A stretch of DNA of 64,000 nucleotides, from contig NC_015185.1 in the NCBI RefSeq assembly GCF_000191045.1, positions 1,184,501 to 1,248,500 on the forward strand, given 5' to 3'. The notes below the pieces were generated by a model that saw only the letters and a list, made by a program, of their open reading frames with translations, made no database searches and was not told the DNA's origin. Source of the DNA: Desulfurobacterium thermolithotrophum DSM 11699 (GTDB lineage Bacteria > Aquificota > Aquificia > Desulfurobacteriales > Desulfurobacteriaceae). Made by a program: the position numbers and the translations under genes. Positions 4,979-6,955 of the stretch are shown here, in pieces. How positions within the stretch are numbered: position 1 is the first letter of the stretch; every line of letters starts with the position of its first letter.

Positions 4979-5326
4979 ATGAAAGCAAAAGTTGTTTTTC
5001 ATATTGATTCTGAAGAAAAAAAACTTCTTATGACACTTAATAACATCGAAAATCTATTAAAAGAAATTCCTGCTAAGGATATATCTATCTATGTAGTAGC
5101 AAATGGTACTTCAGTTAAGCTACTCAAAAAAGAAAATGCTGCTAAATACATAGATAGAATGAAAAAACTTTCCGATATAGGTGTTAAATTTTTGTTGTGT
5201 AACAACTCGCTTCGTAAGCAAAATATTAGACCTGATGAACTTTTAGAATTTTGCAAAATAGTACCAGCTGGAGTTGTAGAATTAATCCGATTGCAAAAAG
5301 AAGGTTGTGCCTATATTAAACCTTAA
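4979..5326 (+). CDS. DsrE/DsrF-like family protein
   Basis: A 115-residue soluble protein resembling the DsrE/DsrF-like fold (COG1416 type). It starts with a beta strand (KVVFHID), continues with an amphipathic helix, then IYVVANGTSVKLL, GVKFLLCNNSLR with one cysteine in the position often seen in this family, and ends with VPAGVVELIRLQKEG, a common signature. Members act in sulfur relay or bind small sulfur carriers; the exact role of single-domain copies is unknown. It has a strong AAAGGAGG site. It follows nuoN by 31 bases and may share its transcript. Candidate role: sulfur metabolism in a sulfur-respiring host (inference). Confidence 0.8.
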   Translation: MKAKVVFHIDSEEKKLLMTLNNIENLLKEIPAKDISIYVVANGTSVKLLKKENAAKYIDRMKKLSDIGVKFLLCNNSLRKQNIRPDELLEFCKIVPAGVVELIRLQKEGCAYIKP

Positions 5327-5339
5327 AAAACACGTCTAA

Positions 5340-5432
5340 ACTACCCCTCATTAAATTAAAATGAGAGGGATTTCGTAGTCTCCAAAAGGAGACTACAAGC
5401 TGGTTTATCAGCTTGTCCCGTCACAACGGGCA
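5340..5432 (-). ncRNA. candidate omega RNA (reRNA) at the tnpB 3' end
   Basis: On the tnpB strand, the last part of the coding region and the bases just after it form four consecutive hairpins: CCCGT/ACGGG (5417-5430), AAGCTG/CAGCTT (5397-5414), a perfect 9 bp GTAGTCTCC/GGAGACTAC stem with an AAAA loop on the plus strand (5375-5396), and CCCCTCATT/AATGAG-A-GGG (5344-5369). In known TnpB systems the guide scaffold overlaps the 3' end of the gene and the right end of the element, with the guide taken from the flank. Here the guide would run into the 3' end of the DsrE-like gene. RNA boundaries are estimates. Confidence 0.6.
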
Positions 5433-6669
5433 TCCAACTGCTCACTCTCCCTCTAACCCACTTAAAGTGGTAGAAAGAGATAATTTTAAGAGAGGAAAGT
5501 TTCTTCCCTCTCTTCAATATGTTAACTGCTCCGTTTAGGTCTGCATTCAGTTTTCCACACTTTGGACAGATTACGTAATGTTGATGAGGTCTTTTGACAG
5601 AACTACCGCACTTAAAACACCTTGAGCTTGTATTGTATTCTGGAATCGGTTTAAGTCCGATTCCAGCTTCGGTTAGCTTTTCTTCAAGTCTTTTCGTTAC
5701 ATAAGCTCTTACCCAGAAGTTGTGTAGGAGAATATTAAGCTTTCCAAAGTTTTTGTCTTCTCTAATCCCTGTTAGGTTTCCTACATAAACTTCTTTAGCT
5801 CCTCTTGAAATACAGATTTCTACAACACGATTGAGCATTGAGTTAATTGACTGCTTTAATCTCCTATCTCTTTTAACGTATAGTTTTTGGAGTCTCTTTG
5901 AAGTATAAGCTCCACTTCTGTTAAGGAGAGACTGATACTTAGCTATCTTCCTGTTCCATCTTTTGTAGTCTTTGATAAGCTCTCTGCTTTTAAACTGGAA
6001 AACTTCTATCCCTTTATCTGTTTCCACTGCAAGTGTCAGGAAGTTACGAATCCCAAAGTCTATCCCTGCTGTCTTTTCTCCTACTGGTTTGGTTTCGGAA
6101 TTCTGAAGATTAACAGATATATAACACCACCACTCCCCAGCTTTATAGAAGATTTCAGCTCTACCAAAACCTTTAATGTTTTCATAAGAGACTGAATACT
6201 TAGCTCTAATCTTTAGTCTTTTTCTGCTTAAATCTTTCGGAACTGTCATCTCAAAAGAGTAATTCCCTAAACGGTAGCTCCTGTCTGTCTTAATGTAGAT
6301 GTCCATAGGAAGAGTTAAGTTTCTTTTCCTGTCTTTTTTGTATTTTGAAGGATTTACCTTTTCTATGTGTGGAGGTAGTTCTCCTTTTTCTTTTTGTTTC
6401 TTTAGCTTTAAAAACGACTTCCAGTCCTCTAATAGCTTCTTTAAAACTTCCTGAGCTATGTCTGAAGGGAGAGCTTTATACTCTGGTAAGCCCTTAGCTA
6501 ACTTGTAGAGAATTCCATCAGTAACTTTGACTTTTCCAAAGGAGAAATACTGCTGTCTTAGGATGTAATTAAAACGGTTGTAGAGATAACTGCACCTTAA
6601 CTGAATTTCTTTTAACTTCCGTTTCTCATCTTTCGTAGGATATAGCTTGACCTTGACTATTCGCTTCAT
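5356..6669 (-). CDS. tnpB: RNA-guided endonuclease TnpB (IS200/IS605 OrfB)
   Basis: A 437-residue TnpB. An OrfB N-terminal domain is followed by a split RuvC nuclease and a zinc ribbon: TAGIDFGIRNF with RuvC-I Asp204, a basic bridge region, NADLNGAVNIL with RuvC-III Asp377, and zinc cysteines 351, 354, 368 and 371. At the RuvC-II position the usual glutamate is replaced: EVYVGNLTGI has Gly297. A glutamate at 344 (IPEYNTSSRC) could substitute if this is a lineage with a relocated acidic residue. The ATG starting MKRIVKVKLYPT is chosen over an upstream in-frame GTG-like extension that runs into the divergent gene. The C-terminal 50 residues overlap the candidate omega RNA. Confidence 0.92.
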   Translation of the reverse strand: MKRIVKVKLYPTKDEKRKLKEIQLRCSYLYNRFNYILRQQYFSFGKVKVTDGILYKLAKGLPEYKALPSDIAQEVLKKLLEDWKSFLKLKKQKEKGELPPHIEKVNPSKYKKDRKRNLTLPMDIYIKTDRSYRLGNYSFEMTVPKDLSRKRLKIRAKYSVSYENIKGFGRAEIFYKAGEWWCYISVNLQNSETKPVGEKTAGIDFGIRNFLTLAVETDKGIEVFQFKSRELIKDYKRWNRKIAKYQSLLNRSGAYTSKRLQKLYVKRDRRLKQSINSMLNRVVEICISRGAKEVYVGNLTGIREDKNFGKLNILLHNFWVRAYVTKRLEEKLTEAGIGLKPIPEYNTSSRCFKCGSSVKRPHQHYVICPKCGKLNADLNGAVNILKRGKKLSSLKIISFYHFKWVRGRVSSWMPVVTGQADKPACSLLLETTKSLSF

Positions 6670-6715
6670 AAAGATTAATTTATTCTCAGAAATTATGATG
6701 TCAAGGTGTAATAGT

Positions 6716-6913
6716 ATGACCAAGAAAAAGTATGTTCAGACTACTATTAGAGTAGAAGAAGAAGTTTTCAAGGAATACAAAAAGTGGTTGATAGACAAAG
6801 GTTATAGGTCTATCAATCAGCACTTGAACGAGGTTATAAAGAAAGTGTTAGAAGAAGATAACCGCATTCCTCTCTCCTCTAAAGAGGAGAGTATCCTGCG
6901 GAGGAAATCGTGA
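6716..6913 (+). CDS. ribbon-helix-helix small protein, divergent from tnpB
   Basis: A 65-residue basic protein with the CopG/Arc-type ribbon-helix-helix pattern: a strand (YVQTTIRV) followed by two helices (EEEVFKEYKKWLIDKGY, then SINQHLNEVIKKVLEE). The ATG at 6716 is chosen because AAGGTG lies eight bases upstream; an upstream ATG at 6647 would overlap tnpB coding sequence and lacks a ribosome site. It is head-to-head with tnpB with only 46 bases between the starts, so a dimer bound there could control both genes (inference). It could instead be a host antitoxin-like regulator unrelated to the element. The last 17 codons form a strong hairpin. Confidence 0.7.
   Translation: MTKKKYVQTTIRVEEEVFKEYKKWLIDKGYRSINQHLNEVIKKVLEEDNRIPLSSKEESILRRKS
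6862..6901. repeat. long hairpin inside the 3' end of the ribbon-helix-helix gene
   Basis: An inverted repeat with a 9 bp perfect inner stem (CTCTCCTCT, loop AA, AGAGGAGAG, 6872-6891) and a second outer stem CCGCA/TGCGG (6862-6866 with 6897-6901), separated by 5-base internal loops. No T-run follows, so it is not an ordinary terminator. It could be the left-end hairpin of the IS200/IS605-type element or an RNA structure in the small gene's message. Confidence 0.6.
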
Positions 6914-6955
6914 AAATTTTCTTGAGTTCTATCTACTGGAATTAAGCTTTTTCTG

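What the first reader, a model, noticed from the sequence alone, without database searches (positions are those of the whole stretch)
5356..6669. TnpB without the canonical RuvC-II glutamate
RuvC-I Asp204 and RuvC-III Asp377 are intact but the RuvC-II position reads VYVGNL, with Gly where Glu normally stands. Either the acidic residue has moved (Glu344 in IPEYNTSSRC is a candidate; I recall that TnpB lineages with a rearranged RuvC-II site have been described) or the protein is a nuclease-dead, RNA-guided DNA binder of the TldR kind. The gene is otherwise full length and its RNA scaffold is well kept.
Basis: partly seen in the sequence, partly recalled or inferred. Interest (0 to 1): 0.55.

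Follow-up and report, generated by a model that had tools for sequence, protein, structure and literature searches.

The report
TnpB with a relocated catalytic glutamate
This is a transposon-borne RNA-guided DNA-cutting enzyme (TnpB) whose usual catalytic glutamate is missing but is replaced by one at a second, already described position, so it is most likely an ordinary active member of a known branch of the family, not a dead one.

Summary
In detail: the 437-aa TnpB at 5356-6669 (-) keeps D204 and D377 but has Gly297 at the canonical RuvC-II Glu position. E344 fits the published alternative glutamate ("Ealt", PMC10711439): six residues before the first CxxC, matching the published pattern exactly at 344-377. 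Of 160 TnpB reading frames with both columns readable, 128 have Glu only at the E344 column, 30 only at the canonical column, none both, 2 neither. In an AlphaFold model E344 follows strand 338-343 directly before the zinc ribbon. Purifying selection (dN/dS about 0.13), a folded 3' RNA scaffold, presence at different genomic places and no second guide match in the chromosome speak against a TldR. Best reading: an active RNA-guided nuclease of the known DPhiG/Ealt kind in a tnpA-less IS200/IS605-type element. Cleavage was not tested. A small ribbon-helix-helix-like gene lies divergently beside this tnpB lineage in 8 of 8 places of the phylum search, but not in a viral-contig copy; its role is unknown. 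Low interest; new member of a known kind.

The parts
5336..6914 (.). Whole mobile element (1579 bp), or 5336-6909 if TTCAC is the flanking target motif and not part of the element
   Evidence: 79% DNA identity to L009 starts and stops here while the flanks differ; nuoN and the HD gene are direct neighbours in 14 of 20 other genomes of the family that hold the HD gene; 13 of these gaps were printed, 41-141 bp between match ends
5356..6669 (-). tnpB, 437 aa, ATG start, stop codon included
6058..6060 (-). RuvC-I Asp204 (DFG, i.e. D-Phi-G type)
5779..5781 (-). Gly297, the canonical RuvC-II Glu position
   Evidence: aligned with Glu of Cas12f chains
5638..5640 (-). Glu344, alternative RuvC-II glutamate (Ealt)
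5539..5541 (-). RuvC-III Asp377
5557..5619 (-). Zinc ribbon C351-x2-C354 ... C368-x2-C371 (TNB domain)
5336..5436 (-). Putative omegaRNA/reRNA scaffold (right end), overlapping the 3' end of tnpB; hairpins at 5417-5430, 5397-5414, 5375-5396 and 5344-5369
   Evidence: the 5' limit of the RNA is not known
5316..5335 (-). Predicted guide (first 20 nt after the right end), over the 3' end of the DsrE-like gene
   Evidence: inferred from the right-end boundary; its only match in the chromosome with up to 3 mismatches
6716..6913 (+). Small ribbon-helix-helix-like (Arc-like) gene, 65 aa, divergent from tnpB
6862..6901 (.). Left-end nested hairpin (inside the 3' end of the RHH-like gene)
   Evidence: (z -3.3)
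6910..6914 (-). Candidate target/TAM motif TTCAC at the left end
   Evidence: at the left junction of 3 of 3 copies compared (window, L009, L218); the L218 junction was set by eye; not tested

Best explanation
The protein is a full-length TnpB of the known DPhiG/Ealt kind. Its RuvC active site is D204-E344-D377: the metal-binding glutamate comes from just after the strand that leads into the zinc ribbon, not from the end of the earlier strand, where this kind has Gly (alignment shown; catalysis inferred). It is carried by a tnpA-less IS200/IS605-type (IS1341-like) element and would use the RNA of the element's right end, read into the flank as guide, to cut DNA that carries the guide match next to a target motif (candidate TTCAC), that is the empty donor site, as proposed for other TnpBs (inferred). 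Movement would need a Y1 TnpA in trans (inferred; one intact Y1 domain exists elsewhere in the genome).
For: Exact fit of 344-377 to the published Ealt pattern; in my set the pattern fits 29 of 128 Ealt and 0 of 30 Ecan frames, many Ealt frames lacking the zinc ribbon. Mutually exclusive glutamates: 128 Ealt only, 30 Ecan only, 0 both, 2 neither among 160 readable of 163 unique frames. The states need 3 changes on a 77-row tree, shuffled mean 16.7. AlphaFold model (pLDDT 82.9): strand 338-343 runs into E344; Yoon et al. say that Ealt TnpBs and Fanzors place this Glu in a distinct, consistent place. SpuFz1 E541, D383, N385 and D606 hold two Mg ions. The model matches ISDra2 TnpB (8h1j, Z 22.6, residues 1-391) and mimivirus Fanzor2 (9b0l, Z 19.3, residues 1-392). 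dN/dS 0.14 and 0.13 against L009 and L218. RNA scaffold kept.
Against: No member of this close lineage was assayed in anything I read. The one archaeal TnpB whose mutated catalytic residues I read of, SisTnpB1 (D187, E271, D335), has its Glu at what I judge canonical spacing, so it is no precedent for Ealt. The Fanzor structure paper describes Glu between the fifth strand and TNB for Fanzor, TnpB and Cas12a alike, so that sentence does not tell the two sites apart. The modelling tool returns no coordinates, so the distance of E344 to D204 and D377 was not measured; pTM is only 0.59 and residues 303-319 are under pLDDT 50. Homologues were collected by similarity to this protein or to an Ealt profile: the census proportions are not natural and related rows are not independent. 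The tree is a FastTree with long-branch warnings, and the next supported set around the window protein mixes Ealt and Ecan.
Confidence: 0.86

Rival explanations
1. Nuclease-dead RNA-guided DNA binder (TldR-like): G297 marks loss of catalysis, and the protein represses a host or element promoter.
For: Canonical Glu absent; a small putative DNA-binding protein gene sits beside tnpB; single copy in this genome.
Against: D204, D377 and an aligned Glu are all present, and the Gly/Glu pair is shared from Aquificota to archaea. TldRs are described as mutational inactivations of RuvC that became tied to non-transposon genes (passages). The 20-nt guide has no second match with up to 3 mismatches (the reversed control pattern has 2 matches), and TTCAC plus the first 11 nt only meets its own locus with up to 2. 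The element sits at different places in different genomes.
Confidence: 0.07
2. A recently decaying copy in which the active-site change is simply damage.
For: Single copy, no tnpA in the element.
Against: Open full-length frame, dN/dS about 0.13, the same Gly in 5 of 5 close relatives (L009, L010, L011, L012, L218), changes on both sides of RNA pairs.
Confidence: 0.02
3. Active nuclease, but another acidic residue (for example E304 or D305), or D204 and D377 alone, completes the metal site and E344 is structural.
For: No direct measurement of geometry.
Against: E304 is Lys in L009 and D305 is Gly in L218. E344 is the only acidic position between D204 and D377 that is invariant in the 11-row and 35-row alignments (E334 is in 90% or more of the 11 rows; all rows had been chosen as Ealt), and Glu there goes with loss of the canonical Glu in 128 of 130 frames.
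Confidence: 0.05

Closest known systems
Ealt DPhiG TnpBs (Yoon et al. 2023, PMC10711439)
   Same: Glu six residues before the first zinc CxxC, hydrophobic residue after the RuvC-I Asp, canonical Glu absent
   Different: Nothing seen in the catalytic signature; this copy is in Aquificota (phylum inferred from record titles of relatives) and has an RHH-like neighbour
Fanzor / pro-Fanzor (SpuFz1; mimivirus Fanzor2, 9b0l)
   Same: Ealt signature, overall fold (Z 19.3 to 9b0l)
   Different: DFG not DPG at RuvC-I; no IS607 serine recombinase in the element; bacterial
ISDra2 TnpB (8h1j, 8exa)
   Same: Fold (Z 22.6 and 21.1); 3' RNA overlapping the gene (ISDra2: recalled)
   Different: ISDra2 TnpB uses the canonical Glu (recalled; not checked by a call)
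Sulfolobus ISSis2 TnpB (pHVE14, L038) and archaeal virus copies (L041, L042)
   Same: 32-33% identity, Gly at the canonical position, Glu before the zinc ribbon or its remnant
   Different: tnpB overlaps a tnpA gene in L038; no RHH hit in these loci
TldR
   Same: No canonical RuvC-II Glu
   Different: Catalytic acids of the Ealt triad retained, element at different places, no second guide match in the chromosome

Membership tests
TnpB (guided_TnpB) | OrfB_IS605, TNB and guided_TnpB models over curated cut-offs | tested here: met
TnpB (guided_TnpB) | Structured RNA at the element's right end, overlapping the gene | tested here: met
   (sequence and fold only; no transcript data)
TnpB (guided_TnpB) | RNA-guided DNA cleavage | not testable with these tools
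   needs an assay
DPhiG Ealt TnpB branch | E-x6-CxxC-x(12,18)-CxxC-x(4,8)-D | tested here: met
   match at 344-377
DPhiG Ealt TnpB branch | Hydrophobic residue after RuvC-I Asp, then Gly | tested here: met
   DFG at 204-206
DPhiG Ealt TnpB branch | Placement with Ealt sequences in a tree | tested here: inconclusive
   smallest starred sets of 3 and 5 rows are all Ealt, the next (35 rows) is mixed; FastTree with long-branch warnings
Fanzor / pro-Fanzor | DPG at RuvC-I | tested here: not met
   DFG
Fanzor / pro-Fanzor | IS607 serine-recombinase TnpA in the element (pro-Fanzor, Fanzor2) | tested here: not met
   frames of 80 aa or more inside 5336-6914 are tnpB and the RHH-like gene only
TldR | Mutational loss of RuvC catalytic residues | tested here: not met
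   D204, E344, D377 kept
TldR | Guide complementary to a separate genomic target | tested here: inconclusive
   no second match in this chromosome; shorter or looser matches and targets elsewhere are not excluded
IS200/IS605 (IS1341-like) element | Subterminal hairpins at both ends, tnpB without tnpA | tested here: met
IS200/IS605 (IS1341-like) element | Insertion 3' of a short fixed motif | tested here: inconclusive
   TTCAC at 3 of 3 left junctions; no true empty site found

The most novel reading that the evidence does not exclude
In Aquificota this Ealt TnpB forms a stable two-gene, tnpA-less element with a divergent Arc-like ribbon-helix-helix protein that controls the shared promoter region or helps the element move, a partnership that I have not seen described (one library search).
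Probability: 0.25. Interest if true: 0.4.

Novelty: new member of a known kind. Interest (0 to 1): 0.2.

Why it matters
It is a clear case that a missing canonical RuvC-II Glu should not be read as a dead nuclease without looking before the zinc ribbon: of 130 frames here without the canonical Glu, 128 have Glu at the other site. A compact Ealt TnpB with a clean RNA scaffold could be a convenient bacterial enzyme for asking whether the relocated Glu reduces collateral single-strand cutting, as Yoon et al. suggest. The conserved RHH-like neighbour is an unexplained extra.

Tried and rejected
TldR reading: not favoured, given the kept catalytic acids, selection, different genomic places and the guide search.

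S. islandicus TnpB7/SisTnpB1 as active Ealt precedents: dropped. The residues reported for SisTnpB1, D187/E271/D335 (PMC10640517, part 1 of 2 of the text), have what I judge canonical spacing, whereas the Ealt protein of pHVE14 has D191/G281/E324/D358. For TnpB7 (PMC11043419, section 6 and passages) I saw no residue numbers. ISXfa1 as an active Ealt precedent: not claimed; the passages I read do not say which Glu it has.

Not obtained: a residue-by-residue alignment to a Fanzor chain (only the five best PDB alignments are printed); the distance of E344 to D204/D377 (no coordinates returned); an exact empty site (the relatives lack both the element and the DsrE-like gene, and I saw no way to align the intergenic DNA). 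Rfam: 0 matches at gathering score in the window. RHH-like protein: no Pfam family for the window's copy at E up to 10, a weak PHROG Arc-like repressor match (E 0.0014). First genome-contig scan with the single protein: none confirmed.

Limits: 163 unique frames (exact duplicates removed, not clustered), 3 dropped for gaps; the tree used 77 of the 160 after an 80% identity filter; A1 rows were picked by me as Ealt; of 50 candidate rows filtered to have Glu at 344 and Asp at 377 I used 31 for A2, plus L138-L140 and the window, so invariance of these two columns there is circular, while G297 and D204 were not filtered on. The fourth hairpin was left out of the pair count because its columns did not align. 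The first alignment read loci with minus-strand matches on the wrong strand and was replaced, whose alignment left out frames of 300 aa or less.

Full report
OBSERVATION. The frame 5356-6669 (-) encodes 437 aa. The protein passes the curated cut-offs of OrfB_IS605, Cas12f1-like TNB and guided_TnpB. Solved Cas12f chains align a Glu with G297 and a Pro with E344, so the canonical position is correctly identified.

WHERE THE GLUTAMATE WENT. I collected TnpB reading frames from the 222 loci then held: 175 frames, 163 unique. Of 160 with both columns readable, 125 have Gly/Glu at 297/344 and 3 Ser/Glu; 30 have Glu at 297 and Pro, Ala, Thr or Ser at 344; none has Glu at both; 2 have Gln/Arg (L088, L100), with a Glu two positions after the 344 column that may be a further shift. 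The sample was gathered by similarity to this protein and to an Ealt profile, so the proportions are not natural and related rows are not independent. On a FastTree of 77 less redundant rows (59 Ealt, 16 Ecan, 2 other) the states need 3 changes against a shuffled mean of 16.7; the program warned of long branches. So the Gly follows the tree and goes with a Glu before the zinc ribbon.

WHAT IS KNOWN. Yoon et al. 2023 (PMC10711439; passages, section 23) define Ecan, about 50 residues before the zinc finger, and Ealt, six residues before it, give the pattern E-x6-CxxC-x(12,18)-CxxC-x(4,8)-D, and report two Ealt clades: DPhiG and DPG (Fanzors and pro-Fanzors). The window protein matches the pattern from E344 to D377 and is DFG, so it has the DPhiG signature. 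In my set the pattern fits 29 of 128 Ealt frames (many lack the zinc ribbon) and 0 of 30 Ecan frames. In SpuFz1, E541, D383, N385 and D606 hold two Mg ions (PMC10432273, passages). That E541 is the Ealt is my inference from spacing (158 residues after D383, within Yoon's 120-160) and from their statement that Fanzors have Ealt. PMC11423790 (passages) puts the Glu between the fifth strand and TNB, but says so of Fanzor, TnpB and Cas12a together, so it does not separate the two sites. Passages of PMC12669027 and PMC12781874 gave nothing on Ealt. Altae-Tran et al. 2023 (PNAS) also describes rearranged TnpB sites, but I saw nothing of it here (not held; recalled).

STRUCTURE. AlphaFold2 on the window protein with 34 relatives gave mean pLDDT 82.9, pTM 0.59; strand 199-205 carries D204, strand 291-298 carries G297, strand 338-343 runs straight into E344, helix 376-389 carries D377. 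Yoon et al. report that Ealt TnpB and Fanzor models place this Glu in a distinct, consistent location. The model matches AsCas12f (7wju, Z 24.0), ISDra2 TnpB (8h1j, Z 22.6) and mimivirus Fanzor2 (9b0l, Z 19.3, 354 residues, rmsd 3.8). No coordinates are returned, so the E344 distance could not be measured.

SELECTION AND RNA. dN/dS (Nei-Gojobori) is 0.14 against L009 and 0.13 against L218, at dS about 1, near saturation. The last 101 nt of the element fold into four hairpins (z -5.0; L009 z -4.4, L218 z -3.2; 0 of 200 shuffles as stable in each). On the first three hairpins 3 of 20 pairs change on both sides among the three sequences, 98.3% of cells pair (one cell does not), 17 of 500 shuffles reach that, and slid controls pair 29-48%. 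With three sequences this is supportive, not strong.

THE ELEMENT. Identity with L009 (79%, another genus of the family) runs from window 5336 to 6914 and the flanks differ. nuoN and the HD gene, which flank the insert region in the window, are direct neighbours in 14 of the 20 other family genomes with an HD match; in the other 6 no nuoN match lay on the 1.5 kb read. Thirteen of the 14 gaps were printed: 41-141 bp between match ends. Both ends of the element carry hairpins. It has no tnpA; the genome has one intact and one broken Y1 transposase domain elsewhere. TTCAC stands at the left junction of the three copies compared (window, L009, viral-contig L218, the last by eye). The 20 nt after the right end match only their own locus with up to 3 mismatches, while the reversed control pattern has 2 matches; TTCAC plus the first 11 nt meets only that locus, with 2 mismatches. 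So no second chromosomal target was found, and the donor itself lacks the candidate motif beside the guide.

THE NEIGHBOUR. A 65-aa RHH-like protein (6716-6913, +) is divergent from tnpB. A search of 136 genomes of the phylum found matches in 23 (E up to 0.01, the weakest perhaps unrelated). It adjoins tnpB at all 8 places of the search that are 42% or more identical to this TnpB: window, G125, G112, G110, G111, G106:C38 and G007:C176 (tnpB cut by the contig end in both), and G007:C103 (tnpB broken). RHH-like genes without a tnpB beside them occur in G127, G062 (two near-identical places), G068, G131, G107 (short remnant) and G007:C209; in G106:C118 the contig ends there; in G091 a broken RHH adjoins an Ecan TnpB. 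The 76%-identical copy on a viral contig (L218) has a left-end hairpin by eye but no RHH gene, and none of the archaeal loci held gave an RHH hit. Family evidence is weak (PHROG Arc-like repressor, E 0.0014). One library search for TnpB with ribbon-helix-helix listed 3 papers, which I did not open.

VERDICT. An ordinary, probably active TnpB of the known DPhiG/Ealt kind. Shown: residues, exclusivity of the two glutamates in the set held, element limits, RNA fold. Inferred: catalysis, guide, motif, movement in trans. On re-checking, the tree and guide rows of the membership test were lowered to inconclusive and the confidence to 0.86.

Noticed in passing
window 6716-6913 (+); L110, L112, L113, L118, L119, L120, L132: Small ribbon-helix-helix-like gene divergent from this tnpB lineage at 8 of 8 places; its 3' end encodes the left-end hairpin in the window.
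   Followed up: partly
window 4979-5326 (+): DsrE/DsrF-like gene between nuoN and the element; there is no room for it between nuoN and the HD gene in the 13 relatives printed. The predicted guide lies over its 3' end.
   Followed up: no
L088, L100: Two TnpBs with Gln at the canonical RuvC-II column and Arg at the Ealt column, with a Glu two residues later (DRFEATT, DRFEPTS): possibly a third placement of the glutamate.
   Followed up: no
L117 1-1422 (-) and 1477-1665 (+): An Ecan TnpB beside a broken copy of the same RHH-like gene, so the neighbour is not confined to Ealt TnpBs.
   Followed up: partly
L218 1501-2835: 76%-identical copy on an 88.8-kb viral contig (IMGVR_UViG_3300026488_000001) without the RHH gene.
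   Followed up: partly
L116 243-2440: RHH-like gene in G131 between frames that by eye resemble transposition genes of the TniQ and TniB kind; not searched.
   Followed up: no
L002, L003, L004, L005, L006, L007: The same genome holds Ecan TnpBs (L003, L004, L005, L007) and Ealt TnpBs without a CxxC zinc ribbon (L002, L006).
   Followed up: partly
L114, L133: Two RHH-like copies about 3.5 kb apart on one contig of G062 with the same flanks as printed, either a tandem duplication or an assembly artefact.
   Followed up: no
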